From positions 310,001-374,000 of the forward strand of contig NBAY01000042.1 in NCBI GenBank assembly GCA_002794775.1: 64,000 bases of DNA, in the 5' to 3' direction. Shown one piece after another: positions 4,957 to 50,990 of the stretch. How positions within the stretch are numbered: position 1 is the first letter of the stretch; each line of letters begins with the position of its first letter. The notes beneath the pieces are model-generated. The model saw nothing but the letters and a program-made list of their open reading frames with translations, was not told where the DNA came from and ran no database searches. The position numbers and the translations under genes were made by a program. The stretch is from Porodaedalea pini (lineage: Eukaryota; Basidiomycota; Agaricomycetes; Hymenochaetales; Hymenochaetaceae).

Positions 4957-6790
4957 CTACTCGAATATCTCCTGGAAAAGCTTTGTGATTTTACAAATCA
5001 TACCAAAACCAACTTGAATCAAGTCATCCAGTGTGTCCGCACTATTGAAGTTTGATCCTGTTGTATCGCTATCCATTTTATGTATCGTCGCCTCGAATCC
5101 ATCGAACATTGTGGTACTGCAAGACTGCTCGGAATCCAAATGTGTCTGCTTTCTCATTTTGGGGGCTCGGGAATGTGCAAACAAGATGTCATCCCCGTCT
5201 TCTTCCGAACTGAAGGCCTCCTTTTGCTTTCGCTTTACTGAAGAGACCCTTTTCAGACAAGCGAGAGATGTGCGTGGGGCAGAGGTCTTGGACATGGATG
5301 CACTGCGAGTGAGGCTCGTGCTAACTTTGTTGGAGTTCTCATTTTCACTTCCACGAGGGCAGTGCGTGGCCGAAATAGGAAGTGTCCTGTGCTTCCTGTT
5401 TCGAACCAATCAGTCTTGTAACACACTAGGAGTGTATGGAACGGAGCAGACTCACTGAAGAACGTGGCATTGAAGACGGTGGGTTAGCCACAAGGCTGTT
5501 CTCTTGATGCTGACCACCTGACCACAACTACGACACACGCAAGTTCCGTCTACTAACGAGAATGTCTCTATGTCTGGATCACTCTTGAACAGTGGTGCTC
5601 AATCCCTGCGGCCTCTTTGAAGTTTCTTCCCATAGAAAACCTCTGATAGCAACTTTTCGTCAAGGCGGATCACTCCGCCCGCCTCCGTATAACGGCTGAC
5701 AATAGAAATGCACCGGACGGTTCGCATATCAATATGAGATCTCTTCATCATGATGCATGATAGACTCACAAGTGCTCAATTTTGTCTCCTACTCGAACGG
5801 AGAAGAGTTCATTCTGCCTGAATGCGCATGACATAACCTTCATTGGACTCATCGGGTTTTGCTCGACTTCGAATTGTCGAGACCACCCGTTGCTATTATC
5901 GCCATCGTCTCCTCCTGAATCAGCAGTTTGTCCTTCTTCGACTTCGCTTGGACGATCTCCCTGCATACTGAGTTCTTCGCGGAGCTTTGATCTGACGGAT
6001 GTTCACTGTCAACGCACGAAATAGGACGTTTTGTACTCAAGCTCACTGGAGATCCCGGCACTTCATCTTATGTTCTATCCAGCGATACAGCTGTGGGACT
6101 TGGATGAACTTTTTGCAGCCTTGGCAATAGCCGGCATTTCCACAACTGTCAGCAAGGATGATGTCCTTGTCTGACCTCATCCTATGTATCCTTTGGTCGT
6201 GATACCTAGACCAAACATCTCAGGCTCCAAAAATCCATATAAGGCTGTCATCGGACGCAGCCCGTTTATCGAGTGTATATGGCTACCGCCAATGGAGGGT
6301 TGCACTTCGCTAAGTGCGTCAAATCGAGGGTCAAAAATGCGGTATAGACAAAGTGCTTTCGAATTGACATACACGTTTACGATCGTATCCTTGATGCGTG
6401 TGAATGCGAATTTCTTCCTCCGAGGGGAGAGGATTGTGCCATCGGATTTCTAGCCTTGCGTTTCTGCAGCTGCTTGGAACGCCTGGACACTACTTCATCG
6501 GAGCTAGCGTGTTCGAAGTCGACTTCCGCATTCTGGCTCCGAGACGCTTTGGACAGTCGAGCGCTGGTCCTGGACGTTGTCGAGAGCATCGGGACATAGT
6601 CCTAGACGGCTGTATTCGGACTCGTTGCCGTCTTCTTCAAAGTCTGTCTCGAACAGAGGGTAGGCAAATGTTGTGGCAGAGCTGGCCCTCTTACGGGTCT
6701 TAGGAAGGCTCTCAAGTAGCTCGGCGAGATGTCGTCGACGTGGCCAAAATTGCCCTCCGGGTCTCCAGAGTCAGATTTAGGGAACGGCAT
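4957..6790 (-). pseudogene. five-exon C2HC module gene, copy 1 (decayed)
   Basis: Reverse-strand paralogue of 31855-33741. The terminal exon is intact (RKHRTLPISAT... to ...KITKLFQEIFE, stop at 4957), as is the MQGDRPSEVEEG exon (about 5760-5990), and the fingers CRSCGQVV...WLTHRLQC and CQGCKKFIQ are visible. Relative to copy 2 it has a 4-nt loss near 6737, a 1-nt loss near 6590, a 4-nt loss near 6420, a 1-nt loss near 6207 and an in-frame TGA near 5612 (RRD then stop). The start ATGCCGTTCCCTAAATC lies at 6790. Several independent lesions make this a pseudogene. Its upstream flank keeps the promoter motif shared by copies 2 and 3. Confidence 0.75.
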
Positions 6791-7257
6791 GACAGTGAGG
6801 AGGAGTTTGCACGCGCAGTCCCTAGTTAATTTTCTCCGAGAGTTGCAAGTTTTATATACAATATCACACACGTGCAACGGCTGAAATTCGCTTGCGTTGC
6901 TTGAAAGCTGGTACAGCCCATCATGCATATGCATGGTCTCAAGCAGCCCTCAAGCTTTTAACGGACTGATCAAGTATAAATTAATATGACTCGCCTTCAT
7001 GAGAGAGTTGCGGCGTGTCAACCGCGATTCGCTTTGGCTCGTTCCAGAAGATGAAGTACGCCCAGAATTCGGAGGTAATCCAAGCCGCACATTTAATCGG
7101 AGGCGGCTTTTCAAGTAGATGAGTCGAGAGAACCTTCGAACGAGAAGCAAGCTTAAGTTGTGCTATCGATCCCATCGCGAATCCTCGAAGCTCACGAAGC
7201 CTGCTCAGCCCTCAGGCTTCCTCTTTCTTTCTCCTACTAGTACGACTTGGGAGCACG

Positions 7258-7273
7258 TTCGAATGTTCGAGGG
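7258..7273 (-). promoter_or_regulatory. conserved palindromic upstream motif of copy 1
   Basis: On the minus strand this reads CCCTCGAACATTCGAA. The same CTCGAACATTCGAA core occurs upstream of copy 2 (31382-31395) and copy 3 (34293-34306). In all three it lies between a GGTTCTAAT-like block and GTACTAG(T/C)AGGA. The position several hundred bases before the start codon and the conservation suggest a shared promoter element; no binding factor is known. Confidence 0.5.
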
Positions 7274-12211: not shown

Positions 12212-12218
12212 ATTTTGG
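12212..12218 (+). repeat. left target-site duplication of the palindromic element
   Basis: ATTTTGG lies directly before the first base of the palindrome. The same seven bases follow its last base at 25363-25369. The match extends to eight (ATTTTGGC) if the first C of the left arm is counted as host sequence. Confidence 0.8.
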
Positions 12219-12289
12219 CACTTCAGGCTACCCCTCTGAGCAGACCAAGTAGGTCTATTCGTACACACAACTAATTGACCATTTAGGTA

Positions 12290-12570
12290 TTGAGCCTGGG
12301 TGTGCCCAATCCGCTGGGCACTCCCAGTGGGTGCGGGTTGGGTGTGCCCAATTTTTTTTACTGTGGGAAAGTTGGGTGCACCCAGATCATTTGGGCACTC
12401 CCAACTGGGCCTGCCCAGTTTTTGGGCACTCCCAACCGGGCCTGCCCAGTTTTTGGGCACTCCCAACCGGGCCTGCCCAGTTTTTGGGCACACCCAGTGG
12501 GAGTGCCCTGGGAGTGCCCAGATATGTCACTGTCACTGACTGTCTGGGGGACTTTTGGGCACACCCAATT
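12290..12570. repeat. outer GGGCAC/GTGCCC array, left arm (mirror 25011-25291)
   Basis: A cluster of TGGGCAC and GTGCCCA motifs, including three near-perfect 31-bp units (GCACTCCCAAC.GGGCCTGCC plus CAGTTTTTGG). It sits about 75 bases from the element terminus in both arms, as expected of subterminal repeats that bind a transposase. The open frames crossing it are repeat artefacts. Confidence 0.75.
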
Positions 12571-13454
12571 TGTTTTTGCCATAAAATCTAGGGGCTTTAT
12601 AAATGTTGTATTTTATTGTTTTTGATCCTACAATTTAGTGATCTTGCTATTGACCATTGGCATGAATTGAATTTTGGTCAAGATTAGTCTGCATCAGACA
12701 GGAAAGAATGCTGAGCATGCTAGACACACAGGACAAAAAGATATTTGTTGCTATTAGAAAGACTAAGATAATAAAAATAATAGAGATAGTATTGAACAGT
12801 TCTATATACTGTAAGACAAATGGAGAAATAGGGAAATTGTACAGCAGTATAAGAGAAATGAAAATAAATATGAGTCAGCTAAAAGTGTAATGACTACTTA
12901 AGAAATCATTAATGATATTCTAACATTAAACATTGGGAATCAAGCTTCAGCATTCTAACTATATTAGAGAGATTATATGTCATAGGCTCTATGAGAAGTT
13001 CTAACTAGAGTGACATAGCTGCACTGGACACTTAAGTAGAGCAATTGAAAACTGAACAAGTGCAAAGGTCTGATACATTAGGATTAGTTTGAATGCCCAA
13101 GTAGAATAGAGAGTATAAACTAAGAGGGAAACTGAGATAGAAATGTAGAAAGAGTGTAAGTCCACTAGAGCATTCTTATCATTTCTAACATGTTGCTGAC
13201 CTTCTGAACATCATAACATAACTTTGAGATACTAAGCATCTAACACTCTGAGATACACAAAGTATCAATACAGTGTAAAATCCTAGGATGAAGAGAACAA
13301 GAAAGGGAAGAGATTTGAAGTTAAAATGAAAGAGAGACTTGAAAGCAGTCAGACTTGAGCTGTGCTCAAATATCAGGCCTGGACTACTAAGCTTAAAAGA
13401 TTAGATATGACTAGTTGACTGTATCTAAATCTTTTACAGGTACCTAGTTGAGTA
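12571..13454. other. AT-rich filler, left arm (mirror 24127-25010)
   Basis: AT-rich sequence without coding potential, RNA gene or internal repeat that I can recognise. Confidence 0.5.
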
Positions 13455-14090
13455 TACTCAGTATACCCAACTATTTGGGAGTGCCCAATTATCTGGGGGT
13501 GCCCAATTGGGCACACCCAACTATCTGGGGGTGCCCAGTTGGGAGTGCCCAACTATCTGGGGGTGCCCAGTTGGGAGTGCCCAACTATCTGGGGGTGCCC
13601 AGTTGGGAGTGCCCAACTATCTGGGGGTGCTCAGTTGGGAGTGCCCAACTATCTGGGGGTGCCCAGTTGGGAGTGCCCAACTATCTGGGGGTGCCCAATT
13701 GGGCACACCCAACTATCTGGGGGGGGCCCAGTTGGGAGTGCCCAACTATCTGGGGGGGCCCAATTGGGCACACCCAACTATCTGGGGGGGCCCAGTCAGG
13801 AGTGCCCAACTATCTGGGGGTGCCCAGTTGGGTGCGCACAACTATCTGGGGGTGCCCAGTTGGGTGTGCCCAACTATCTGGGGGTGCCCAGTTGGGTGTG
13901 CCCAGTTGGGTGTGCCCAACTATCTGGGAGTGCCCAGTTGGGCACACCCAATTATCTGGGGGTGCCCAACTGGGTGCACCCAACTATCTGGGGCCCAACT
14001 GGGTGCACCCAATTATCTAGGGGTGCCCAGTTAGGTACATCCAATTATCTGGAGGTGTCCAGTTAGGTACACCCAAATGTCTGAGAGTAC
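13455..14090. repeat. inner 32-bp tandem array, left arm (mirror 23491-24126)
   Basis: About 18 head-to-tail copies of a 32-bp unit, roughly AACTATCTGGGGGTGCCCAG then TTGGGAGTGCCC, with variants toward the inner end. The unit contains short inverted TTGGGCAC/GTGCCCAA words. It is open in all three forward frames only because its length and composition lack stops. Confidence 0.9.
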
Positions 14091-15340
14091 CTAGCTATAT
14101 AAGGTCTTTTTTGATTCCTGCCTTAGAATCATTTTTTAAAATGCAAAAAATCATTATGTCATGAAAATTAAATAAGTCTAGAATGGAAGCCTTAATAATT
14201 CTATAGATAATTTCTCAAGCATTTTGTTCTAGACTCTGCATCTTGGCAGCTTTGCTCTGAAGACAAATCAATACACTACAATCATTGACCCGACACCAGA
14301 GCTTCCACAAGATTAAGGACAAGAAAGCATAAAACTTCATTTTGAAGAGATTACCACCCTGCTCCTCAATAGTGCTCTGTATCTTCTCAATTGCATGCTC
14401 AAGACACTCAATTGCTGCATACCGCAAACTCAAAATAAGTATAGAGTGAGACAATTATAACAAACACAGTGCACATTGTCAGTAGCATTTGTACCCAGCA
14501 CACAGAGAGGCAGTGAAATGAGCTTTGCCTTGATAGGTACCACCTCAGTGCTCACCACCTCACCTGTCTGATAATATCAATGCCCATGTCCATATAGCAC
14601 ATTAACTCAATGTCTGCATGCAGCTTGATTGGCTACAGTAGTTGGCCACCACATGATCATCACCATCAGCTGTGCGAATGTTGCCAGTAACAGCAAGTTC
14701 AACAGCATTGTGAAGACCTTCTCCAGCTCCATCAGTATGAGCTTGAATGCATCATACAGATGGCCATATGTCTTGCCTAGCAGCCACCATCACTATTTCC
14801 TTCTTGTCCTCACCTGTTGCCTCCAGTTTTGCAGGTGTGGTGCTGGACTGGCCCTCAGAGATCTCCTCTGACAAAAGTTTGGATGCAACATGTCATAATA
14901 TGGATGCAACCATCTTCTCTTCACATTTTGTAATGTCCTCCAGTGATACACAACACTTACTCAGATCAAAGTATCCTTCAAGGATAACAAATGAATGACT
15001 GAGACTGATACAACAGATACAACAAGAGACAGACCCTTCCCCTTGTCCACATGTAGGATGACAATGATCTCTTTCCTTCCAACACAGATCAGCCTTTGAA
15101 TTGAACAAGTTCACCTGCAAGAAAGCTCTGAGAGTAGAATCATCCCCTTGATGTTGTCACATTCAACCTGTATATATCATGAATGACAGTCAGTATTAAG
15201 TCGCATCGGCCTCTGACCCGACACTCAAGCCCAAGTTGGACAAATAGTTCAAATCTGTACTCCATGCGGGACTCCACACACCATTAGTACTGTTATTGAA
15301 GTTATAGCTATAATGATAGCTACATGACACCACACACAGT
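14091..15340. other. AT-rich region with unidentified coding remnants (mirror 22241-23490)
   Basis: Short open frames such as 14215-14454 (minus; AAIECLEHAIEKIQSTIEEQ) and 14893-15120 (minus; VNLFNSKADLCWKERDHCHP) look like pieces of former exons. I do not recognise a family. They may be remnants of an original transposase or further captured DNA. Confidence 0.35.
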
Positions 15341-15353
15341 ATCTCAAGCATTG

Positions 15354-16085
15354 GTTCACCAAGTGAGAGTGGCAAGTACAAAAAGCACACTGTCAGCTCT
15401 TCAAGTGGGACAGGCATCGGGTCAGACGACAATGGTGTCTGACGGAAAGCGGAAAAAGCAATGTTCGTTGTGCACTGAGTGCCGCGTGCTGGTGAGCTGC
15501 AATGATCGTGAGAGGGCGGCACACTCCGCACGGCTGCGCCATCTGGCAGCGTAGCAGCACACCTGAGCTCTGTTCGCGAACCCTGCCTTTGTCTGCGTAC
15601 GGCCAAATTCCGGACTATTTGCATCGGACAAGGGTGGACTCGGGAAGTGCATCGCGTCGCGTGCTGCAGATTGTTGGCAGTGAACCAAATGCGATTGTTG
15701 ATTCACCAAGTGAGAGCGGCGAGTACGACAGGCAGAATGTCAGTTTTTTGAGCGGAACGGGCATCGGTCAGACAACAATGGTGTCTGTGATGCAAGCGCG
15801 GAAGAAAGGAATGTTTGCTGTGCACTGAGCGCCGCAATGACCGCGAGAGGTGGACCAACAAACGAGAACGGCAACGATCCTGGGGATCAATAGTGGGGCA
15901 GCACGCTCCGCACGGCCGCATCACCTGGCAGCGTCGCAGCATGTCTGAGGTACTCCGTTTGCCATCCCTGCCTTTGTCTGCGCGCGGCCAGACTTCAGAC
16001 TTGCGCCTGCATCTGGCAAGGGTGGACTCGGGAAGTGCCCCGCGTTTGTGCACTGCAGAAACCGGAGACGATCCAAATGCATTCG
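15354..16085. repeat. direct duplication of a ~350-bp GC-rich unit (mirror 21496-22227)
   Basis: Two units starting at about 15354 and 15701, both with TTCACCAAGTGAGAG. Each continues through GGGCATCGG.TCAGAC.ACA, a GTGCACTGAG.GCCGC block, CCGCACGGC, CCCTGCCTTTGTCTGCG and CAAGGGTGGACTCGGGAAGTG. The units have diverged by many substitutions and small indels. Origin unknown. Confidence 0.7.
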
Positions 16086-16140
16086 TACCCTCGCTTTTCG
16101 TGCGTTGCATGTTGCGTGACTTCTCTTCCTGCGGCAGCGT

Positions 16141-17305
16141 AGTGCTCTTGCCGACCCAGAGACACCACCCTAGGGCATCGCCCAATGCGCGTTAGCAGCG
16201 TTCAACCACGCGTGATGGGACCGGAGAGCTTTGCCCATGCTCGATTCAAATAGCATCGATCCTGTAAGAATCTTGATACCACAACGAGTGCGGCGACGAA
16301 AGTGCGCCGCGGGCGAAGAAGCGGCGATGACAGAGGTGACAGCGGTGTGAACGGTTTTCCAAGGATCTTACGACGCTTGTCGTTAGACTGCCCTTGAGTC
16401 TGCATCTGCTGAGTTAATGGAAGCGAAGTGTCCATATGGTAGACTGTCGGCACGCGCGATGTGTCGGAGGGGTCCATTGACGTCAGCTCTGTCGGAAGAC
16501 CGCAGGGGTTGGACGTGTCCGAAGAGGTATTTGCCTTTGACGAGAGAGACGCCTCGCCTTCCCTCTTATCCAACTCCGGCTCGCCCCTCACTCCCGTGCT
16601 GATCTTCTCCTTCTCCGCGAGCCCCGTCACCTTCCCCCGCACCACCCCGATGTAGCAGAGCGCCGACTGCAGGACGCTACGTCTCGTGCGTGAACGGCGA
16701 GGCGAGTGCGATGCAGTGCGTATGCGACGAAGTGCGCAAGCGTATTCGGTATCACTGGTGCCCCTCCTGATCCTGCCGTTGCGGTAGCGGGGGAACGCGA
16801 GACGACTGCGGTCGAGGACGATGTGGAAGAGGTGGAGGACGACGGAGGAAGGATCTCGGGGCAGTCGAAGGTATGGCTGACGAAGCGCGCGCAGAGCTTG
16901 CTGATGTCTTCGTGCCCGTAGTAAGTGTCGACTGCCGGTGGGGGTGCTGCTGGCGCGGGGTGGTGCGAGTGGTGTGCGCGCGGGACTGCCGATGACTGTT
17001 TTTTTGTCGAGCGTTTTCGGCGCGGTCGGAGGGAAAAAAAAGTGATAGAGAAAAAGACACCGATCAACAGCCGCTCATCACTCAAGTATCAGAGATCGGG
17101 GGGAAAGAGGGGGGATGCTTACAGAACTCGAGGTAGACGCTGCGGCAGCGGCGGACGCAGAAGACGATTTCGCAGGTGGAGGCGGGGCGTACGTCGCGCG
17201 GTGCACGCGCCGGAAGGGCGAGTGGTTCGAGCTGGCACTCGACGGTGATATCGAATGCGGATGCGGATGGGGGTGGGGATGGCGCGGGGCGTGGACGGTG
17301 GCCAT
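16141..17305 (-). pseudogene. captured Pho80/PCL-type cyclin gene fragment, left arm
   Basis: Mirror of 20276-21440, read on the minus strand. See the right-arm entry for details. Confidence 0.7.
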
Positions 17306-17582
17306 ATTCGCTGCAGCGGGCTCTCTGGCTCTGGACGTTGACGAGCGTCTGTGAGCGTCGAAGGACAGGTGGAGTTGATGCGTGAGAAGAGGTCGCTGCG
17401 AATGTTTTGATCGGAACGAGATCCTTCTCGGACACAACGGTTGCGTCGCGTTCGCCGGACCGCTCAATGAGAAGGGCGGATGGGAAAACGGCTGACGTCG
17501 ATGTTGAAGCGTGTGGATCGTCAAGGGGGGCAGGAGGAAGAGGCGAGGAACACGTGCTGCGTGAACAGGGCGAGGGAAGTTG

Positions 17583-17817
17583 AACCACACCAGTGCGGCA
17601 GAGACGGAGGGAAGAGTGACCAGCAGAAAGGAGCACCCTGCTTCATCGGGAAGCCCTGCTTGTCGTTTCCGCCAGAGACGCGGAAGACGTAGCCCTTGAA
17701 CTCATCACCGAGCAAGTCGCTGGGGACACCTGGGACATCTTCTTGCCGTGGAAAATGCGGTAACGACGCTCATCGTCGATGTTGATCGTCTTTTGCTGGC
17801 CCATCGCCAGGTCAGCG
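17583..17817 (-). pseudogene. captured ribosomal protein S6 fragment, left arm
   Basis: Mirror of 19764-19998, read on the minus strand. See the right-arm entry for details. Confidence 0.75.
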
Positions 17818-18637
17818 ATGTCGACACTTCATGGCCGGTGGTGTCTTGAGGAGCTCGTCGTGTTCTGTCCCTTCAGGCAAGCAAAAAAAATGATGAAAAG
17901 TAATTATTAGTATATTCAAATAGTTTTTATGATTATTTTTTTTGCTTACCTTGAGTGTGTGGCTGGTGGGACAGCCGTGCTCGTCGTCGATGGTGAAGAC
18001 GAAACGACACGAACAACGACGACGCGTTGGTTGTGTTGCCTGATTTGGCTGATCGCCGCGTCTCAAACAAGCAATCAAAGCATTCCGATTCTTTCGGAAA
18101 TCTCAAAAGTCTCAGCTGTTGGCCTCAGACAAATTCTACGGACGCGTTTAAAAATACAAAAAAATATGGAATAGTTTTATTATGTATGTATCTATAGCAT
18201 AGCTAAGAACTACGCGTCCAGCGCGTTTTTTTATGGAGTCATAAATACAACAGTAATCTTGACATGCAGCACCAGGCCTCCAGAAGCATACACAAAAGTA
18301 CAATATACCCTGAAAGGCCTGACACATATTCTATCATGAAGTAAGTGATACATTGTGTATGTATGCAAGGTTTCAAGCCAATCAGACAAGAACTGACTTC
18401 ATGATAGAGAAGGAGGTGGTTTCATGAGATCTTCTGAATCTGAGTGTTTTGTATATCCTGTTCCCAGTTTTTACTTTGAGGGCATATAAAATATTGAGCA
18501 TATTTAGGGATATCGTTTTTATGTCTCTGTAAATTTACAGGTATCCAGCCTCAGTGGTTGGAGCTGGGGGAATTGCAAAACATCGAAAATCTTGGGTTTA
18601 AGAGGTTCAGAGAAAGCATATATTCATGTTGTTGCTT

Positions 18638-18942
18638 GGTTCAAAGTATGAGAAGCTCAACAAATTTAGTTATTTGTATTTAAGTATGGTCCAAGAAAGA
18701 TATCCAACCCTTAGTTTTGTGGGTGAGGGAAAAGTTGGGAATGGGGAGTGAAATGAGAGGTGATGCAGTTCATGTTTTGTGAAACTCGACGCAAATCCAA
18801 GAAACACAGAGCAGTTTTGCATGTATTTCCTCTCCCCCTTCAGAACTTTCCTCTAACTCCGAGATCTAGCACCTGATTACAATTATTGTAGTCATATAAA
18901 GTACTAATATCTATTTTATAGAGCTTCCTGAAGTTTGGAATA
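18638..18942. other. unpaired central spacer of the palindrome
   Basis: 305 nt that break the palindrome and would form the loop. Next to both arms a weak, gapped complementarity persists (for example GAAGCTC on the left side against GGAAGCTC on the complement of the right). The spacer may be an older, diverged part of the same palindrome. Confidence 0.7.
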
Positions 18943-19479
18943 AAGCAACAACATGAATATATGCTTTCTCTGAACCTCTTAAACCCAAGATTTTCGATGT
19001 TTTGCAATTCCCCCAGCTCCAACCACTGAGGCTGGATACCTGTAAATTTACAGAGACATAAAAACGATATCCCTAAATATGCTCAATATTTTATATGCCC
19101 TCAAAGTAAAAACTGGGAACAGGATATACAAAACACTCAGATTCAGAAGATCTCATGAAACCACCTCCTTCTCTATCATGAAGTCAGTTCTTGTCTGATT
19201 GGCTTGAAACCTTGCATACATACACAATGTATCACTTACTTCATGATAGAATATGTGTCAGGCCTTTCAGGGTATATTGTACTTTTGTGTATGCTTCTGG
19301 AGGCCTGGTGCTGCATGTCAAGATTACTGTTGTATTTATGACTCCATAAAAAAACGCGCTGGACGCGTAGTTCTTAGCTATGCTATAGATACATACATAA
19401 TAAAACTATTCCATATTTTTTTGTATTTTTAAACGCGTCCGTAGAATTTGTCTGAGGCCAACAGCTGAGACTTTTGAGA

Positions 19480-19763
19480 TTTCCGAAAGAATCGGAATGC
19501 TTTGATTGCTTGTTTGAGACGCGGCGATCAGCCAAATCAGGCAACACAACCAACGCGTCGTCGTTGTTCGTGTCGTTTCGTCTTCACCATCGACGACGAG
19601 CACGGCTGTCCCACCAGCCACACACTCAAGGTAAGCAAAAAAAATAATCATAAAAAACTATTTGAATATACTAATAATTACTTTTCATCATTTTTTTTGC
19701 TTGCCTGAAGGGACAGAACACGACGAGCTCCTCAAGACACCACCGGCCATGAAGTGTCGACAT
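19480..19763 (+). pseudogene. unidentified captured fragment with an intron (mirror 17818-18101)
   Basis: A GC-rich piece that reads FVFTIDDEHGCPTSHTLK, then GTAAGC, an AT-rich stretch of about 90 nt and a TTTTGCTTGCCTGAAG acceptor. It looks like the end of one exon and an intron of a host gene. I do not recognise the gene. It runs directly into the RPS6 fragment. Confidence 0.4.
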
Positions 19764-19998
19764 CGCTGACCTGGCGATGGGCCAGCAAAAGACGATCAAC
19801 ATCGACGATGAGCGTCGTTACCGCATTTTCCACGGCAAGAAGATGTCCCAGGTGTCCCCAGCGACTTGCTCGGTGATGAGTTCAAGGGCTACGTCTTCCG
19901 CGTCTCTGGCGGAAACGACAAGCAGGGCTTCCCGATGAAGCAGGGTGCTCCTTTCTGCTGGTCACTCTTCCCTCCGTCTCTGCCGCACTGGTGTGGTT
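19764..19998 (+). pseudogene. captured ribosomal protein S6 (eS6) fragment, right arm
   Basis: Frames around here encode [20 protein letters not shown], then [20 protein letters not shown] and GFPMKQG, followed by a LLSAGHS...RTG block. These are the N-terminal signature segments of eukaryotic 40S protein S6. The reading frame is broken near GKKMSQ and just after MKQG, and the rest of S6 (RKRKSVRGC onward) is missing, so it cannot make a ribosomal protein. It is embedded in transposon sequence with the cyclin piece next to it. A full copy is expected elsewhere in the genome. Confidence 0.8.
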
Positions 19999-20275
19999 CA
20001 ACTTCCCTCGCCCTGTTCACGCAGCACGTGTTCCTCGCCTCTTCCTCCTGCCCCCCTTGACGATCCACACGCTTCAACATCGACGTCAGCCGTTTTCCCA
20101 TCCGCCCTTCTCATTGAGCGGTCCGGCGAACGCGACGCAACCGTTGTGTCCGAGAAGGATCTCGTTCCGATCAAAACATTCGCAGCGACCTCTTCTCACG
20201 CATCAACTCCACCTGTCCTTCGACGCTCACAGACGCTCGTCAACGTCCAGAGCCAGAGAGCCCGCTGCAGCGAAT

Positions 20276-21440
20276 ATGGCCACCGTCCACGCCCCGCGCC
20301 ATCCCCACCCCCATCCGCATCCGCATTCGATATCACCGTCGAGTGCCAGCTCGAACCACTCGCCCTTCCGGCGCGTGCACCGCGCGACGTACGCCCCGCC
20401 TCCACCTGCGAAATCGTCTTCTGCGTCCGCCGCTGCCGCAGCGTCTACCTCGAGTTCTGTAAGCATCCCCCCTCTTTCCCCCCGATCTCTGATACTTGAG
20501 TGATGAGCGGCTGTTGATCGGTGTCTTTTTCTCTATCACTTTTTTTTCCCTCCGACCGCGCCGAAAACGCTCGACAAAAAAACAGTCATCGGCAGTCCCG
20601 CGCGCACACCACTCGCACCACCCCGCGCCAGCAGCACCCCCACCGGCAGTCGACACTTACTACGGGCACGAAGACATCAGCAAGCTCTGCGCGCGCTTCG
20701 TCAGCCATACCTTCGACTGCCCCGAGATCCTTCCTCCGTCGTCCTCCACCTCTTCCACATCGTCCTCGACCGCAGTCGTCTCGCGTTCCCCCGCTACCGC
20801 AACGGCAGGATCAGGAGGGGCACCAGTGATACCGAATACGCTTGCGCACTTCGTCGCATACGCACTGCATCGCACTCGCCTCGCCGTTCACGCACGAGAC
20901 GTAGCGTCCTGCAGTCGGCGCTCTGCTACATCGGGGTGGTGCGGGGGAAGGTGACGGGGCTCGCGGAGAAGGAGAAGATCAGCACGGGAGTGAGGGGCGA
21001 GCCGGAGTTGGATAAGAGGGAAGGCGAGGCGTCTCTCTCGTCAAAGGCAAATACCTCTTCGGACACGTCCAACCCCTGCGGTCTTCCGACAGAGCTGACG
21101 TCAATGGACCCCTCCGACACATCGCGCGTGCCGACAGTCTACCATATGGACACTTCGCTTCCATTAACTCAGCAGATGCAGACTCAAGGGCAGTCTAACG
21201 ACAAGCGTCGTAAGATCCTTGGAAAACCGTTCACACCGCTGTCACCTCTGTCATCGCCGCTTCTTCGCCCGCGGCGCACTTTCGTCGCCGCACTCGTTGT
21301 GGTATCAAGATTCTTACAGGATCGATGCTATTTGAATCGAGCATGGGCAAAGCTCTCCGGTCCCATCACGCGTGGTTGAACGCTGCTAACGCGCATTGGG
21401 CGATGCCCTAGGGTGGTGTCTCTGGGTCGGCAAGAGCACT
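20276..21440 (+). pseudogene. captured Pho80/PCL-type cyclin gene fragment, right arm
   Basis: Starts at a plausible ATG (20276; MATVHAPRHPHPH), with a His/Pro/Ser-rich N-terminus. A retained intron (20459 to about 20583) follows. Then come YYGHEDISKLCARFVSHTFD, PNTLAHFVAYALHRTRL, VLQSALCYIGVVRGKVTGL, RRTFVAALVVVSRFLQDRCY, LNRAWAKLSG and ALGDALGWCLWVGKS, the successive blocks of a fungal PCL-like cyclin box. They lie in different frames, and a TAA interrupts the RC.RALGDA block, so the copy is dead. Such cyclins partner a Pho85-type kinase. Retention of the intron points to DNA-level capture. Confidence 0.75.
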
Positions 21441-24400
21441 ACGCTGCCGCAGGAAGAGAAGTCACGCAACATGCAACGCACGAAAAGCGAGGGTACGAAT
21501 GCATTTGGATCGTCTCCGGTTTCTGCAGTGCACAAACGCGGGGCACTTCCCGAGTCCACCCTTGCCAGATGCAGGCGCAAGTCTGAAGTCTGGCCGCGCG
21601 CAGACAAAGGCAGGGATGGCAAACGGAGTACCTCAGACATGCTGCGACGCTGCCAGGTGATGCGGCCGTGCGGAGCGTGCTGCCCCACTATTGATCCCCA
21701 GGATCGTTGCCGTTCTCGTTTGTTGGTCCACCTCTCGCGGTCATTGCGGCGCTCAGTGCACAGCAAACATTCCTTTCTTCCGCGCTTGCATCACAGACAC
21801 CATTGTTGTCTGACCGATGCCCGTTCCGCTCAAAAAACTGACATTCTGCCTGTCGTACTCGCCGCTCTCACTTGGTGAATCAACAATCGCATTTGGTTCA
21901 CTGCCAACAATCTGCAGCACGCGACGCGATGCACTTCCCGAGTCCACCCTTGTCCGATGCAAATAGTCCGGAATTTGGCCGTACGCAGACAAAGGCAGGG
22001 TTCGCGAACAGAGCTCAGGTGTGCTGCTACGCTGCCAGATGGCGCAGCCGTGCGGAGTGTGCCGCCCTCTCACGATCATTGCAGCTCACCAGCACGCGGC
22101 ACTCAGTGCACAACGAACATTGCTTTTTCCGCTTTCCGTCAGACACCATTGTCGTCTGACCCGATGCCTGTCCCACTTGAAGAGCTGACAGTGTGCTTTT
22201 TGTACTTGCCACTCTCACTTGGTGAACCAATGCTTGAGATACTGTGTGTGGTGTCATGTAGCTATCATTATAGCTATAACTTCAATAACAGTACTAATGG
22301 TGTGTGGAGTCCCGCATGGAGTACAGATTTGAACTATTTGTCCAACTTGGGCTTGAGTGTCGGGTCAGAGGCCGATGCGACTTAATACTGACTGTCATTC
22401 ATGATATATACAGGTTGAATGTGACAACATCAAGGGGATGATTCTACTCTCAGAGCTTTCTTGCAGGTGAACTTGTTCAATTCAAAGGCTGATCTGTGTT
22501 GGAAGGAAAGAGATCATTGTCATCCTACATGTGGACAAGGGGAAGGGTCTGTCTCTTGTTGTATCTGTTGTATCAGTCTCAGTCATTCATTTGTTATCCT
22601 TGAAGGATACTTTGATCTGAGTAAGTGTTGTGTATCACTGGAGGACATTACAAAATGTGAAGAGAAGATGGTTGCATCCATATTATGACATGTTGCATCC
22701 AAACTTTTGTCAGAGGAGATCTCTGAGGGCCAGTCCAGCACCACACCTGCAAAACTGGAGGCAACAGGTGAGGACAAGAAGGAAATAGTGATGGTGGCTG
22801 CTAGGCAAGACATATGGCCATCTGTATGATGCATTCAAGCTCATACTGATGGAGCTGGAGAAGGTCTTCACAATGCTGTTGAACTTGCTGTTACTGGCAA
22901 CATTCGCACAGCTGATGGTGATGATCATGTGGTGGCCAACTACTGTAGCCAATCAAGCTGCATGCAGACATTGAGTTAATGTGCTATATGGACATGGGCA
23001 TTGATATTATCAGACAGGTGAGGTGGTGAGCACTGAGGTGGTACCTATCAAGGCAAAGCTCATTTCACTGCCTCTCTGTGTGCTGGGTACAAATGCTACT
23101 GACAATGTGCACTGTGTTTGTTATAATTGTCTCACTCTATACTTATTTTGAGTTTGCGGTATGCAGCAATTGAGTGTCTTGAGCATGCAATTGAGAAGAT
23201 ACAGAGCACTATTGAGGAGCAGGGTGGTAATCTCTTCAAAATGAAGTTTTATGCTTTCTTGTCCTTAATCTTGTGGAAGCTCTGGTGTCGGGTCAATGAT
23301 TGTAGTGTATTGATTTGTCTTCAGAGCAAAGCTGCCAAGATGCAGAGTCTAGAACAAAATGCTTGAGAAATTATCTATAGAATTATTAAGGCTTCCATTC
23401 TAGACTTATTTAATTTTCATGACATAATGATTTTTTGCATTTTAAAAAATGATTCTAAGGCAGGAATCAAAAAAGACCTTATATAGCTAGGTACTCTCAG
23501 ACATTTGGGTGTACCTAACTGGACACCTCCAGATAATTGGATGTACCTAACTGGGCACCCCTAGATAATTGGGTGCACCCAGTTGGGCCCCAGATAGTTG
23601 GGTGCACCCAGTTGGGCACCCCCAGATAATTGGGTGTGCCCAACTGGGCACTCCCAGATAGTTGGGCACACCCAACTGGGCACACCCAACTGGGCACCCC
23701 CAGATAGTTGGGCACACCCAACTGGGCACCCCCAGATAGTTGTGCGCACCCAACTGGGCACCCCCAGATAGTTGGGCACTCCTGACTGGGCCCCCCCAGA
23801 TAGTTGGGTGTGCCCAATTGGGCCCCCCCAGATAGTTGGGCACTCCCAACTGGGCCCCCCCCAGATAGTTGGGTGTGCCCAATTGGGCACCCCCAGATAG
23901 TTGGGCACTCCCAACTGGGCACCCCCAGATAGTTGGGCACTCCCAACTGAGCACCCCCAGATAGTTGGGCACTCCCAACTGGGCACCCCCAGATAGTTGG
24001 GCACTCCCAACTGGGCACCCCCAGATAGTTGGGCACTCCCAACTGGGCACCCCCAGATAGTTGGGTGTGCCCAATTGGGCACCCCCAGATAATTGGGCAC
24101 TCCCAAATAGTTGGGTATACTGAGTATACTCAACTAGGTACCTGTAAAAGATTTAGATACAGTCAACTAGTCATATCTAATCTTTTAAGCTTAGTAGTCC
24201 AGGCCTGATATTTGAGCACAGCTCAAGTCTGACTGCTTTCAAGTCTCTCTTTCATTTTAACTTCAAATCTCTTCCCTTTCTTGTTCTCTTCATCCTAGGA
24301 TTTTACACTGTATTGATACTTTGTGTATCTCAGAGTGTTAGATGCTTAGTATCTCAAAGTTATGTTATGATGTTCAGAAGGTCAGCAACATGTTAGAAAT

Positions 24401-25362
24401 GATAAGAATGCTCTAGTGGACTTACACTCTTTCTACATTTCTATCTCAGTTTCCCTCTTAGTTTATACTCTCTATTCTACTTGGGCATTCAAACTAATCC
24501 TAATGTATCAGACCTTTGCACTTGTTCAGTTTTCAATTGCTCTACTTAAGTGTCCAGTGCAGCTATGTCACTCTAGTTAGAACTTCTCATAGAGCCTATG
24601 ACATATAATCTCTCTAATATAGTTAGAATGCTGAAGCTTGATTCCCAATGTTTAATGTTAGAATATCATTAATGATTTCTTAAGTAGTCATTACACTTTT
24701 AGCTGACTCATATTTATTTTCATTTCTCTTATACTGCTGTACAATTTCCCTATTTCTCCATTTGTCTTACAGTATATAGAACTGTTCAATACTATCTCTA
24801 TTATTTTTATTATCTTAGTCTTTCTAATAGCAACAAATATCTTTTTGTCCTGTGTGTCTAGCATGCTCAGCATTCTTTCCTGTCTGATGCAGACTAATCT
24901 TGACCAAAATTCAATTCATGCCAATGGTCAATAGCAAGATCACTAAATTGTAGGATCAAAAACAATAAAATACAACATTTATAAAGCCCCTAGATTTTAT
25001 GGCAAAAACAAATTGGGTGTGCCCAAAAGTCCCCCAGACAGTCAGTGACAGTGACATATCTGGGCACTCCCAGGGCACTCCCACTGGGTGTGCCCAAAAA
25101 CTGGGCAGGCCCGGTTGGGAGTGCCCAAAAACTGGGCAGGCCCGGTTGGGAGTGCCCAAAAACTGGGCAGGCCCAGTTGGGAGTGCCCAAATGATCTGGG
25201 TGCACCCAACTTTCCCACAGTAAAAAAAATTGGGCACACCCAACCCGCACCCACTGGGAGTGCCCAGCGGATTGGGCACACCCAGGCTCAATACCTAAAT
25301 GGTCAATTAGTTGTGTGTACGAATAGACCTACTTGGTCTGCTCAGAGGGGTAGCCTGAAGTG

Positions 25363-25369
25363 ATTTTGG
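25363..25369 (+). repeat. right target-site duplication of the palindromic element
   Basis: ATTTTGG, identical to 12212-12218, immediately after the palindrome. Confidence 0.8.
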
Positions 25370-31381: not shown

Positions 31382-31395
31382 CTCGAACATTCGAA
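31382..31395 (+). promoter_or_regulatory. conserved upstream motif of copy 2
   Basis: CTCGAACATTCGAA, 460 bases before the ATG at 31855, shared with copies 1 and 3. The downstream neighbour GTACTAGTAGGAGAAAG is shared with copy 1. Confidence 0.5.
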
Positions 31396-31854
31396 CGAGC
31401 TCCGAAATTGTACTAGTAGGAGAAAGGAGGGACAGGTCGGACGGCTGAGTAGGTCTTCATTGGCTTCGTGGCTTCTCAATCAGATCGATATCACAACTTG
31501 CTTCTCGTTCGAAAGTTCGCTCGACTCATCTACTTGAAAACGCCGTCTCCGATTAAATGCACATCTAGGATTACCCCCGAGTTCTGTGGGCGTACTTCAC
31601 CTTCTGGAACGAGTCAATGCGAATCGGGGTTGACACGCCGCAACTCTCTCATGAAGGCGAGTCACATCAATTCATACATGTCAATCTACATTCAATCTGT
31701 TAGTAGCACGAGGGTTGCTTGAGATCATGCGTGATAGCGCCGTACCAGCCCTTTCAAGTAATGCAAGCATGAAACAGCCGTTTGCACGTGTGTAAGATAT
31801 AAAACATGCAGCTCTCGCACTAAGAACTCCGTGTGCAAACTCCTCCTCACTGTC

Positions 31855-33741
31855 ATGCCGTTCCCTAAATCTGACCCCGGACACGCGGAGGGCAATTTTG
31901 GCCACGTCGACGACATACATCTCGCCGAGCGACTTGAGAGCCTTCCTAAGACCCGTAAGAGGGCCGGCTCTGCCACAACATTTGCCTACCCTCTGTTCGA
32001 GACAGATTTTGAAGAAGACGGCAGCGAGTCCGAATACAGCCCGTCTAGGACTATGTCCCTGATTCCCCAGACAACGTCCAGGACCAGCGCTCGGCTGTCC
32101 AAAGCGTCTCTGGGCCAGAATGCGGAAGTCGACTTCGAACACGCTAGCTCCGATGAAGTAGTGTCCAGGCATTCCAAGCAGCTGCAGAAACGCAAGGCTA
32201 GAAATCCGGTGGCACGATCCTCTCCCCTCGTCGGGAGGAAGAAATTCGTATTCGCACGCATCAAGGATACGATCGTAAACGTGTATGTCAATTCAAAAGC
32301 ACTTTGTATTTACCGCATTTTTGACCCTCGCTTTGACGCACTTAGCGAAGTGCAACCCTCCATTGGCGGTAGCCATATACACTCGATAAACGGGCTGCGT
32401 CCGATGACGGCCTTATATGGATTTTTGGAGCCTGAGATGTTTGGTCTAGGTAACCACGACCAAAGGATACATAGGATGAAGTCAGACAAAGACATCATCC
32501 TTGCTGACAGTTGTGGAAATGCCGGCTATTGCCAAGGCTGCAAAAAGTTCATCCAAGTCCCACAGCTGTATCGCTGGATAGAACATAAGATGAAGTGCCG
32601 GGATCTCCAGTGAGCTTGAGTACAAAACGTCCTATTTCCTGTGTTGACAGTGAACACCCGTCAGATCAAAGCTCCGCGAAGAACTCAGTATGCAGGGAGA
32701 TCATCCAAGCGAAGTCGAAGAAGGACAAACTGCTGACTCAGGAGGAAACGAAAACGATAATAGCAACGGGTGGTCTCGACAATTCGAAGTCGAGCAAAAC
32801 CCGATGAGTCCAATGAAGGTTATGTCATGCGCGTTCAGTCAGAATGAACTCGTCTCCGTTCGAGTAGGAGACAAAATTGAGCACTTGTGAGCCTATCATG
32901 CATCATGATGAAGAGATCTCATATTGATATGCGAACCGTCCGGTGCATTTCTATTGTCAGCCGTTATACGGAGGCGGGCGGAGTGATCCGCCTTGACGAA
33001 AAGTTGCTATCAGAGGTTTTCTATGGGAAGAAACTTCAAAGAGGCCGCAGGGATCCAACACCACTGTTCAAGAGTGATCCAGACATAGAGACATTCTCGT
33101 TAGTAGACGGAACTTGTGTGTGTCGTGGATGTGGTCAGGTGGTCAGCATCAAGAGAACAGCCTTGTGGCTAACCCACCGTCTTCAATGCCACGTTCTTCA
33201 GTGAGTCTGCTCCGTTCCATACACTCCTAGTGTGTTACAAGACTGATTGGTTCGAAACAGGAAGCACAGGACACTTCCTACTTCGGCCACGCACTGCCCT
33301 CGTGGAAGTGAAAATGAGAACTCCAACAAAGTTAGCACGAGCCTCACTCGCAGTGCATCCATGTCCAAGACCTCTGCCCCACGCACATCTCTCGCTTGTC
33401 TGAAAAGGGTCTCTTCAGTAAAGCGAAAGCAAAAGGAGGCCTTCAGTTCGGAAGAAGACGGGGATGACATCTTGTTTGCACATTCCCGAGCCCCCAAAAT
33501 GAGAAAGCAGACACATTTGGATTCCGAGCAGTCTTGCAGTACCACAATGTTCGATGGATTCGAGGCGACGACATACAGCATGAATAGAAATAGGATGGTA
33601 TCAAATAAGCGTTCCGAAGGATCGATGAATATGGTGTACATCGAAAACTTGAACGGTGCGGAAATACTGGATGACTTGATTCAAGTGGGGTTTGATATGC
33701 TTTGTAGGGTCACGAAGTTTTTCCAGGAGAGATTCGAGTAG
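31855..33741 (+). CDS. five-exon protein with two C2HC modules, copy 2 (about 544 aa)
   Basis: Five exons join in phase 2 throughout: 31855-32282, 32346-32609, 32665-32886, 32961-33200 and 33261-33741. The N-terminus is acidic/Ser-rich (FETDFEEDGSESEYSPSRT), followed by a basic KQLQKRKARNP stretch. Exon 2 ends with a module containing CQGCKKFIQVPQLYRWIEHK, pattern C-x2-C-x11-W-x2-H-x3-C. Exon 4 holds the second module (VDGTCVCRGC, WLTHRLQC) with identical spacing. Exon 5 is Ser/Lys-rich with a probable nuclear-localisation stretch (LKRVSSVKRKQKEAF) and a conserved C-terminal helix (LIQVGFDMLCRVTKFFQERF). No named family is recognised. The same tail and modules recur in copies 1, 3 and 4 of this window. 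A nuclear role is inferred from the basic stretches only. Confidence 0.7.
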
Positions 33742-40609: not shown

Positions 40610-42766
40610 CAAGGGGAATGTTGAGAAAAACTTTACGCCTGAAAACAGCACTGCCTGCTTAGAAGAGTGCGCATCATGTCCAAAAACAGTGCAGAGCATA
40701 CATATACTCAACGGCAGCCTGAAAGTTCCTGCTGTTCTGTATATTTGCAGCGCATGTAGTATATATTCTCGAGTGCTCGAGCATCTCCTATGCAACCGCA
40801 GCAAAAAAAAAAAAGAACCTCATTCTAGACCTGATCCCTTTGATTTTTCAGTAACTTGACGGAACCTTTTCTCCAAGTTGTGACGGCGATCTGCTTCCGA
40901 CTCCAAAATCCTTATAGTGCTTATATTTAGGCATTGCTCTTTCCTTATCTTTTTGGTATGTTGTAATGTAATCCAAGGTCATCTTGTCGAGGCATGAGTA
41001 CGTATTGTCGTTACGCCTTATCTGAATTACGTGCTTGTTTTGTGAGTTAAACTGCTCTGGCGTCTACTTCCCAGTGCTTGGGTTTTTGAAAATTACAGCC
41101 GTAACAATCATGTGATCGTCCCCGTCATGCAGCAAAAGACATGCGACGCAGTCGGCAAGCGCAAGCGCAGGAGAATGATGACAGTTACTTGCTCCTTGAC
41201 AATAAATCCTTGAGTCCTTAGTCCCAGTGAAAATTAGCAATTGTGGCATCGAGTCGGATCGAGTGAAATATCACCATCAAATGAGCATCGAATGAAATCG
41301 AGTGCTGGACGTTTTTATGTTGTGAAATCTAATACCACTCGTAATCACTCGATGTTTGTGATTTGAAAATTGAGTAGAAACGAGTGAAATCGAGCCTCTT
41401 CGCAGCCTTAAAATTTGTACTTTTGATGACCATTCGATATCACAATATGAAAACGTCCCACACTCGATTTCCACTCGATGTTGATTTCTGGTTAGATCTC
41501 ACTCTATATGATTCTATACCACAATTGCTATTTTTCCCTGGGCCTTAGTATGCGGCCAAAGACCCTCGGAGATATGGAAGTTCAAGCATTCGCCTGCGTT
41601 GCATCGCAAACTCGACCTCAAAGGCAACGCCGATTCAGCGAAGCGTCTAGCAAGTCCAAATCGGTTGCTATTCAAAATGAGAGGGGAAATTTTTCAGATG
41701 AGGAGATCGACTGCACGGCCGTGTGGAGGAGTACGTGCCGGAGGCCAAGGCGCAGCGTAAGCATATCGGAGCAATCACTGTGGCTCGTGGAAGTAGTGAT
41801 GGACATGCAGGGACTTGTTGGCGAGCACCTCATCGAGGGCAGGCACGTTGTTGATTGTCCTATTCAGCCCTCACCGTCACCAATAATAATGATATTGTCG
41901 AGACCATCACCGCAGGGTTCTACCACCAATGGATCGCGGATCGACGGAGCTGTAGCTAGTAATTCGTTCCCACACTTTGCAGACGCGCTTCGCGCGTCGC
42001 AGCACATGACCGCGTCCCTCATGCACGCATACACCACGACGCGTGAGTCTGCCGTCTGTCTCTCCCGCACGATCCGCTGGGTACGTCCCAATGTCTCCTA
42101 CTTTCCGTGTTCTCATCACAGAATATCTGAAATTACATTCGCGCTTTCGAATCTCCGAATCACGTTGTACATGTGATCCCAAAATCAGTGCTCTCACTAC
42201 GCAACTTTCAAAGAAGTTTTACTTGTCTATCGGTCTTGATATTTATTACGTTTAGTATTGACATCGTCGTTCCAGTCCTCACTGATAAATTTGACGACTC
42301 GACCGCAATCCCCAGCGCCCCGCACTACGTGGCAAGTTAGTGATGTCCATCACCACGACTATTCTCAATCAAAGTGCAGAACAGTCAGCCACCCTTAACC
42401 TTCGTACGAGGGTCTTCACTGATTGTGTCCCATCGCTACCGTGGACGCGCAACAAGCAATAGATGGACCCCGTTTCTCTTGTCCCCAAAGCTCACTTCAA
42501 ATTCGAGAAGTCTTTCCGAGAGGGAGAGCGGGTGTTTCACGGCTTGCGAGGCTCTAGAGTTTTTAGGTCTGACCAGCGCACACAATCGACGAAGTTTATT
42601 CAGCAAAAGCATATCTCTCGATGCGACCGATCCCCTTACATAGCACTACGCATAGGGCTTTACAACAACAAAGAAACGTAAATCGCGCCCACATGGAGCT
42701 AAGTATTCTACGCATCTGTTTCATATGTTCGTCTAGATTTAGAGTTCATATCTAAGCTTCTAAGGC
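40610..42766. other. intergenic part of duplication unit 1
   Basis: Parallels 54900-57535 of unit 2, with extensive similarity interrupted by insertions. Contains a MITE (41222-41544). The open frame 41508-42176 (plus) starts inside the MITE and has only a decayed counterpart in unit 2, so I do not call it a gene. Confidence 0.5.
41222..41544. mobile_element. MITE, CCCAGTGAAAATTAG family, copy b
   Basis: 323 bp with inverted ends TCCCAGTGAAAATTAGCAAT and the near complement (ATTGCTATTTTTCCCTGGGC). It is flanked by TTAG on both sides (41218-41221 and 41545-41548). Unit 2 has a single TTAG and no insertion at 55683-55686, giving an empty site. Confidence 0.8.
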
Positions 42767-46918: not shown

Positions 46919-47365
46919 TGTTAGGCGGAAGTCTGGGTGGAACTCAGACTAGGCAACCTCAACGTGCGGCACCTGACGGTGATGTGGACGTTGTCTGGGA
47001 CGGGCTGTATCTCGAACACAAAGTTTGGGCAACCGGTTTACTCAGACTAGGTCGTCGTGGAGGTAAGAGGATTAATACAAGACTAGACTAATACAAGGGG
47101 GACGAGTCTCACCTAGGTCGTCGCGGAGGTAAGAGGAAAAGCAGAACAAGGAGTTCATGCGATTCCTGAGACCTTATATAGTGACGACCGTGAGACTATA
47201 TTACCTAACATTACATAATGAGTGGGAATGGAACGAATGAAGGTTATATGAAGGGAGTGTGGGAAGTGATTGGAAAGATGGTTAGGGATAATGAAAAGGA
47301 GTGATTAAAAGAAAAGGAAAAGGAAAAGGGGAAATAAAGAAAAGGTAAAAGTTCAAGTTCTGACA
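46919..47365 (-). repeat. 3' LTR (447 bp)
   Basis: On the minus strand TGTCAGAACTTG...CCGCCTAACA, with TG..CA ends. It differs from the 5' LTR by about eight substitutions, all transitions and mostly at CpG, and by one 6-bp GGAAAA unit. Confidence 0.95.
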
Positions 47366-47380
47366 TTACCCCCCCTTCAA
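47366..47380 (-). other. polypurine tract of the gypsy element
   Basis: Minus strand GAAGGGGGGGTAA abuts the 3' LTR, in the position of the plus-strand primer. The pol stop codon (TAA) is its last three bases. Confidence 0.8.
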
Positions 47381-50970: not shown

Positions 50971-50990
50971 TCAGTCAGTCGCCCCGATGG

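What the first reader, a model, noticed from the sequence alone, without database searches (positions are those of the whole stretch)
12212..25369. A 13.1-kb almost perfectly palindromic transposon flanked by a 7-bp target duplication
Two 6.42-kb arms are inverted copies with only one homopolymer difference seen, around a 305-nt loop. The outer ends coincide to the base with a direct repeat ATTTTGG. Known foldback elements have long TIRs, but a unit whose TIRs make up about 98% of 13 kb and carry host gene pieces is, to my knowledge, not a described class. Near-identity implies very recent formation or arm-to-arm gene conversion. Its spread would need a transposase supplied in trans.
Basis: partly seen in the sequence, partly recalled or inferred. 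Interest (0 to 1): 0.95.

Follow-up and report, generated by a model that had tools for sequence, protein, structure and literature searches.

The report
Giant mirror-image transposon in a fungus
A 13-kb jumping element that is almost wholly two mirror-image copies of one sequence, carrying a piece of a host gene in each half, is one of some fifty such elements in this probably fungal genome, and the two halves of an element stay nearly identical while the elements drift apart.

Summary
Element 12219-25362 (13,144 bp) has arms of 6,419/6,420 bp with one difference (a T-run indel), a 305-nt loop and a 7-bp target duplication ATTTTGG. It is not an assembly chimera: the same genome (53.3 Mb, 201 contigs) holds 34 facing pairs of the same ends, 24 with an exact 7-8 bp duplication. 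A piece of the eS6 ribosomal protein gene lies in 50 facing inverted pairs; the loop was scored in 40 copies, 39 of them centred between such a pair to within 2 nt. Two longer elements with the same ends encode a KDZ (Kyakuja-Dileera-Zisupton) transposase, so the palindromes are most likely non-autonomous KDZ elements moved in trans. 'Very recent formation' is contradicted: loops are 93-100% identical, and in six fully read elements 63 private substitutions lie in both arms, 1 in one arm only. The arms evolve in concert, by gene conversion in place or by re-copying at transposition. Foldback transposons such as Galileo show this on a smaller scale. What looks new is the superfamily, the 6.4-kb arms and the symmetric multi-gene cargo (eS6; in sister subfamilies also Hsp90 and fatty-acid synthase).

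The parts
12212..12218 (.). left target-site duplication ATTTTGG
12219..18637 (+). left arm, 6,419 nt
   Evidence: alignment with the right arm: one indel, no substitution
12219..12234 (+). conserved terminus CACTTCAGGCTACCCC (CA..TG ends); 45 forward and 42 reverse exact copies in the genome, 0 and 0 for the reversed control
12390..12496 (.). subterminal 31-nt tandem repeats, left arm
13475..14083 (.). minisatellite of 32-nt and related units with TGGG and CCCA motifs, left arm
17588..17861 (-). captured piece of the host eS6 (RPS6) gene, start codon side towards the loop
   Evidence: PF01092, E 4.9e-11; 81% over 301 alignment columns to the full gene on contig C81
18638..18942 (.). loop, 305 nt, the only asymmetric part; 40 copies scored genome-wide (52 candidates), 39 matching positions 1-305 and one 2-305
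19720..19993 (+). captured eS6 piece, right arm copy (coordinates mirrored from the left copy)
   Evidence: mirrored; one search match C42:329854-329952
23498..24106 (.). minisatellite, right arm
25085..25191 (.). subterminal 31-nt tandem repeats, right arm
18943..25362 (-). right arm, 6,420 nt
25347..25362 (-). conserved terminus, right end
25363..25369 (.). right target-site duplication ATTTTGG

Best explanation
A non-autonomous foldback-type DNA transposon of the KDZ superfamily. The whole element except a 305-nt loop has become terminal inverted repeat. SHOWN by sequence: its termini are shared with longer elements that encode a KDZ transposase; copies are flanked by 7-8 bp target duplications; the same loop sits at the centre of 39 paired copies; the two arms of an element carry the same private changes. 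INFERRED: all these copies descend from one palindrome; the KDZ transposase acts on the shared ends (perhaps through the subterminal repeats) and moves the palindrome in trans. After one founding event (probably break repair in which one terminal repeat was copied past its inner edge to the other side), arm-to-arm gene conversion, started by breaks near the loop or by gap repair after excision, has kept the arms nearly identical and has also carried large changes such as captured gene pieces from one arm to the other. Mutations that have escaped are mostly CpG transitions close to the outer ends.
For: KDZ: PF18758 E 2.4e-60 in element C28 (8-bp duplication ACTTGTAT; first 30 nt of both ends equal the window's) and 8.1e-54 in C2 (TTGCTATC; first 17 nt equal). 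The centres of C28 and C2 are collinear over about 11.9 kb at 82%, so the transposase belongs to the element and not to a later insertion. Target duplications: 24 of 34 facing pairs exact at 7 bp (13) or 8 bp (11). Single origin: 40 scored loops, 303-307 nt, 93-100% identical, 20 in each orientation; in 39 of 40 the loop lies between two facing eS6 pieces at equal distance (27 exactly, 10 within 1 nt, 2 within 2 nt; the other, C168, is cut by its contig end). 50 of 57 eS6 loci are facing pairs, 27 spaced 2.12-2.13 kb and 16 spaced 4.26-4.28 kb. Concert: 63 private both-arm substitutions against 1 one-arm substitution in six elements x about 5.7 kb; all six arm pairs are sisters. C25 arms: 0 substitutions in 6,660 nt. 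Hsp90 pieces lie in 20 facing pairs and FAS-alpha (ACPS) pieces in 7, read by eye from the listings. Outer gradient: 12 of 12 one-arm changes lie in the outer 470 nt against 18 of 29 both-arm changes, Fisher p 0.018.
Against: Nothing here shows movement or recombination directly. Homogenisation is not perfect: C3 has 17 arm substitutions in 6.2 kb, C120, C40 and C50in 3 each, C56 2 and C29b 1 in the outer 1.24 kb (1.17 kb in C56), C28 5 in 4.0 kb, C2 58 in 4.0 kb (many in repeats and near the inner edge). The outer gradient is confounded by CpG: all five CpG sites of the 1.24 kb lie in its first 250 nt, and the 29 both-arm cells include sites shared by up to four elements. Nine of 34 pairs have no exact duplication, one has 6 bp. 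The test for conversion in place is weak: C19 has one LTR difference in 414 nt against 0 arm substitutions in 5.7 kb (by my arithmetic the one change falling in the LTR has chance 0.07), and the retroelement in C45 is too young (LTRs identical over 215 nt). C120 and contig C168, apparently the same locus, give no sign of conversion since they parted.
Confidence: 0.75

Rival explanations
1. The arms are renewed only at transposition: the excised or repaired element passes through a folded state in which one arm is the template for the other, so each new copy starts as a perfect palindrome and then decays.
For: Also gives 63 both-arm to 1 one-arm changes. One-arm changes look like decay after insertion: 8 of 12 are CpG transitions. 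C120, with a mutated terminus, keeps 3 arm differences; its apparent second copy on C168 has the same outer arm letters.
Against: Needs many transposition rounds per lineage between symmetric states (3-18 private both-arm changes per element with at most one outstanding). C14b and C25 have no matching target duplication, yet no arm substitution in the parts compared.
Confidence: 0.33
2. Very recent formation: the palindrome arose just now by inverted duplication and has had no time to diverge.
For: One arm difference only in the window copy.
Against: Same loop in 40 scored copies down to 93% identity; 5 symmetric private changes in the window copy itself; same layout in facing pairs whose arm piece differs by 7%.
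Confidence: 0.02
3. Assembly artefact: foldback chimera, or consensus polishing that made the arms alike.
For: Read data and sequencing method not available; several contigs end inside elements (C38, C85, C63, C168).
Against: 24 of 34 pairs with exact 7-8 bp duplications between two different flanks; arm differences are retained where they exist (C3, C120, C40, C50in); insertions into one arm only are resolved (C19, C45).
Confidence: 0.03
4. Two ordinary elements inserted head to head, or a composite of two copies.
For: Two inverted copies side by side are the simplest way to make a palindrome.
Against: In the window copy only the outer pair of termini is present, with none at the loop; the loop has near-constant length in 40 scored copies.
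Confidence: 0.02

Closest known systems
Galileo (P superfamily, Drosophila; PMC2775673 and PMC3573991, passages read)
   Same: Long, internally repetitive TIRs, 7-bp target duplications, many copies that are almost only TIR, TIRs alike within a copy (98-100%) and different between copies (about 7% in D. buzzatii), some copies without matching duplications; TIR growth explained by break repair from the other TIR.
   Different: TIRs 18 bp to about 1.26 kb in D. mojavensis against 6.4 kb here; P-type transposase, not KDZ; no symmetric host-gene cargo in the passages read.
KDZ transposons: Kyakuja, Dileera, Zisupton (PMC12730594, passages read)
   Same: KDZ transposase in the long relatives C28 and C2 (CxC1 cluster in C2); CA..TG termini and 7-bp duplications as reported for Kyakuja, 8 bp as for Zisupton and Dileera.
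   Different: The two Kyakuja families there are said to have no TIRs; here TIRs are about 4-6.7 kb in the elements read whole. No TET/JBP gene among the 14 frames of C28 and C2 scanned with Pfam; not all frames were scanned.
Turmoil-1 (Harbinger, C. elegans; PMC2572040, part 1 of 2 of the text read)
   Same: Pieces of two host genes in both TIRs.
   Different: 760-bp TIRs, one full copy, Harbinger transposase.
Tm1 (Mutator/Foldback, root-knot nematodes; PMC3169594, passages read)
   Same: Foldback-type TIRs with internal tandem repeats.
   Different: TIRs made of 1-9 short repeat units, 93% alike on average within an element, mostly 9-bp duplications.
Pack-TIR / Pack-MULE elements (PMC8277862, passages read)
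   Same: Non-autonomous TIR elements carrying host gene pieces; template switching proposed.
   Different: That pack cargo lies between the TIRs rather than inside both is recalled, not from the passages.
Palindromes of sex chromosomes (recalled; PMC7023750 seen only in a search listing with the start of its abstract)
   Same: Near-identical inverted arms kept so by arm-to-arm conversion.
   Different: Not mobile; not a dispersed transposon family.

Membership tests
KDZ transposon family | KDZ-domain transposase in the autonomous member | tested here: met
   PF18758 2.4e-60 (C28) and 8.1e-54 (C2), CxC1 3.5e-06 (C2), inside elements with the same termini; whether any of these genes is complete was not tested. 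The window copy shows none in the 7 frames scanned
KDZ transposon family | 7-8 bp target duplication, CA..TG ends | tested here: met
   24 of 34 pairs; ends CACTTC..GAAGTG
KDZ transposon family | mobilised by that transposase | not testable with these tools
   needs an excision assay
Foldback-type transposon (structural class) | very long TIRs with internal tandem repeats making up most of the element | tested here: met
   97.7% arms; minisatellites
Galileo / P superfamily | P-type transposase | tested here: not met
   no P-type Pfam family in the 14 frames of C28 and C2 scanned, KDZ instead; not every frame was scanned
Pack-type element | host gene fragments inside a non-autonomous element | tested here: met
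   eS6 in the window copy; Hsp90 and fatty-acid synthase alpha pieces in C3 (Pfam and solved-structure scans) and, by genome search, in C25 and others; the full eS6 gene and longer Hsp90 and ACPS-domain loci lie elsewhere

The most novel reading that the evidence does not exclude
A transposon that lives as an obligate giant palindrome: each round of movement or repair uses one arm as template for the other, so that mutations, kilobase insertions and captured host genes are either erased or doubled; the element is proof-read against itself without a partner chromosome.
Probability: 0.35. Interest if true: 0.9.

Novelty: new variant of a known kind. Interest (0 to 1): 0.78.

Why it matters
Some fifty dispersed palindromes, apparently of one origin, many with flanks and target duplications that fix the insertion, form a replicated natural experiment on how inverted-repeat arms stay identical, a question otherwise studied mainly on sex-chromosome palindromes (recalled). 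They also suggest that a KDZ transposase can move 13-kb near-perfect palindromes, structures usually thought too unstable to last, and that captured host genes can be carried as mirror pairs.

Tried and rejected
Recent inverted duplication: contradicted. Assembly chimera: does not fit the duplications. Head-to-head composite: no inner termini in the window copy. tRNA and Rfam content: none in the window. Empty site for the window insertion: not found. LTR clocks inside arms (C19, C45) to separate conversion in place from renewal at transposition: too young to decide. Swapped target duplications among the nine pairs without a match, as expected after ectopic recombination: looked for by eye in the listing, none seen, not computed. 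Ten elements were read whole (window plus nine) of 34 facing pairs; for the rest only ends or outer pieces. In counting eS6 pairs I dropped 6 of 113 rows: the full gene and five overlapping frame-split rows. Columns with a gap in any arm were left out of the private-change count. The outer C50 pair is doubtful, its two ends being of different end types.

Literature: ten searches. 'giant' with 'palindromic transposon' gave 0 papers; only the open-licence PubMed Central library was searched. That no KDZ foldback or palindromic family is in print is therefore not established.
Full report
OBSERVATION. The element spans 12219-25362. The arms are 6,419 and 6,420 nt and differ by one T in a T-run; the loop is 305 nt; ATTTTGG stands on both sides. 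The arms are 97.7% of the element.

A FAMILY, NOT A SINGLETON. The window lies at G000:C42:310001-374000 of a 53.3-Mb assembly in 201 contigs. The 16-nt end CACTTCAGGCTACCCC occurs 45 times forward and 42 times reverse, its reversed control 0 and 0. I paired these ends by eye into 34 facing pairs 10.7 to 35 kb apart. These include C120, one of whose ends has a mismatch, and an outer pair on C50 that is doubtful because its two ends are of different end types. Target duplications were read for all 34: exact 7 bp in 13, 8 bp in 11, 6 bp in 1, none exact in 9, of which C46 and C49 have one mismatch in 7 (33 pairs; C45). A chance 7-bp match has probability 4^-7 per pair. The inner C50 element has a duplication (TATACTG) that is itself family sequence, so it sits inside another member. 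The ends on C85 and C63, near two contig ends, carry AACAATG on both sides (read from the sequences printed) and look like one element broken by the assembly.

ONE ORIGIN. A search with the 305-nt loop gave 40 scored copies of 52 candidates. Of the 40, 39 match positions 1-305 and one 2-305; lengths are 303-307 nt, identity 93-100%, 20 in each orientation. In 39 of the 40 the loop lies between two facing eS6 pieces, at equal distance from both: exactly equal in 27, 1 nt off in 10, 2 nt off in 2. The exception, C168, is cut by its contig end and is apparently the same locus as C120. The distance itself differs between subfamilies, so length changes in the arms are symmetric too. This is what one palindrome, founded once and then copied, would give.

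CARGO. The window arms hold a piece of the host gene for ribosomal protein eS6 (PF01092, E 4.9e-11). The full gene lies on contig C81. The piece is 81% identical over 301 alignment columns, beginning 29 nt before the start codon, which faces the loop. Of 113 PF01092 matches, one is the full gene and five are overlapping frame-split rows, dropped; the other 107 fall into 50 facing pairs (at most 12.5 kb apart; the widest, 12.3 kb, is the doubtful C50 pair) and 7 single pieces. Spacing is 2.12-2.13 kb in 27 pairs and 4.26-4.28 kb in 16. Counted by eye in the listings, 20 facing pairs carry an Hsp90 piece (genomic gene at C3:769757-771424) and 7 a piece with the ACPS domain, which in C3 is the C-terminus of fatty-acid synthase alpha (best solved relative 7bc4_A, E 2.3e-42; likely gene on C9). 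In most of the listed pairs the two arms score alike. So the kilobase differences between subfamilies are symmetric. C25 and C42 share the outer 2.2 kb (85%), a 0.94-kb middle (94%) and the inner 0.8 kb (94-95%), while what lies between differs.

SOURCE OF TRANSPOSASE. Seven frames from the window arm scanned with Pfam hold no transposase. Two longer elements with the same termini do: C28 (22.1 kb, 4-kb TIRs, duplication ACTTGTAT) has a KDZ domain at 2.4e-60, and C2 (29.6 kb, duplication TTGCTATC) CxC1 at 3.5e-06 and KDZ at 8.1e-54. Their centres are collinear over 11.9 kb at 82%, and C28 shares 414 nt of its left end with the window element at 89% and of its right end at 82%. The genome has 77 KDZ matches, counted exon by exon. 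Kyakuja elements are reported with 7-bp duplications and CA..TG termini but no TIRs, Zisupton and Dileera with 8 bp (PMC12730594, passages). The KDZ assignment is therefore by shared ends, duplication size and enclosed gene; binding and movement are inferred, and completeness of a KDZ gene was not tested.

CONCERTED ARMS. Six elements of the window's type were read whole (C42, C14a, C14b, C19, C29a, C29b). Outside the minisatellite, about 5.7 kb per arm, within-element substitutions number 0, 0, 0, 0, 0 and 1 (plus a few indel columns); between elements 9-35. Private substitutions present in both arms of one element: 5, 3, 18, 15, 14 and 8, together 63; in one arm only: 1. All six arm pairs are sisters in the tree. 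C25 has 0 in 6,660 nt, although it has no matching target duplication; C45 has 0 in 1,904 nt compared. In 12 elements with both outer ends held, 1.24 kb (C56 1.17 kb) was compared: 12 one-arm against 29 both-arm differences from the majority letter; all 12 lie in the outer 470 nt, 8 are CpG transitions, and the five CpG of the segment are all in its first 250 nt. These 12 go against complete homogenisation, as do C3 (17 in 6.2 kb, spread along the arm, with an enlarged 4-kb loop), C28 (5 in 4.0 kb) and C2 (58 in 4.0 kb, many in repeats and near the inner edge). A larger loop may hinder conversion; with one such element this is only a hint.

MECHANISM. Galileo offers the model: break repair of one TIR from the other, with the copied tract running past the TIR and lengthening it (PMC3573991, passages), and TIRs alike within copies but about 7% apart between copies (PMC2775673, passages). 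The same process, carried to completion, would give a 6.4-kb arm and a small loop, and would double any captured piece. Whether conversion acts in place or only at transposition is open: C19's retroelement (one LTR difference in 414 nt, no arm substitution in 5.7 kb) leans to conversion in place (chance 0.07 by my arithmetic), as do C14b and C25 without matching duplications; C120/C168 leans the other way.

HOST. The best named relatives of a window retroelement protein are Sanghuangporus (71%) and Phellinidium (66%) proteins (the best hit, 82%, is unnamed), so a basidiomycete near the Hymenochaetales is likely; this rests on a mobile element and is only a lead.

KNOWN OR NEW. Foldback transposons, concerted TIRs and gene pieces in TIRs are each in print. 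I met no KDZ foldback, no TIRs of this length and no multi-gene symmetric cargo in the listings of ten searches of open-licence papers or in the parts read of seven papers; subscription papers and repeat databases were not searched. Hence a new variant of a known kind.

Noticed in passing
window 46919-53233: A Ty3-type retroelement between direct repeats of about 450 nt (97% alike), with gag, protease and integrase-chromodomain frames on the minus strand.
   Followed up: partly
window 5085-7271 and 31382-33571; 41920-44158 and 56683-58933: Two more repeat pairs of about 2.2 kb in the window, the first inverted at 92.5%, the second direct at 88%; not identified.
   Followed up: no
window 15200-17900 and its mirror: A stretch of about 56-60% G+C inside arms that are elsewhere near 42-47%, with frames up to 290 aa and no Pfam match besides eS6 in those scanned; perhaps further captured host DNA.
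   Followed up: partly
G000 contigs C37, C49, C51, C65, C86, C105: The Hsp90 pieces in these palindromes lie in open frames of 354 residues without stops in the main matched parts, which is unexpected for dead cargo.
   Followed up: no
L034-L035 (C3 element): The element with a 4-kb loop is the one with arm differences spread along the arm (17 in 6.2 kb).
   Followed up: partly
C14:146846 and C54:149323 (L029, L018): Two element ends without an exact partner end share the same flank (99.3% over 1.5 kb); their arm ends differ at a like rate (9 of 1,209).
   Followed up: no
L092 (C45:150700-156100): A retroelement with 215-nt identical LTRs sits 37 nt from the right end of one palindrome; copia-like by eye from its 1,566-residue frame, not tested.
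   Followed up: partly
outer arm, positions 251-1240: No CpG dinucleotide in the majority sequence of about 1 kb of arm, as expected from methylation and deamination.
   Followed up: no
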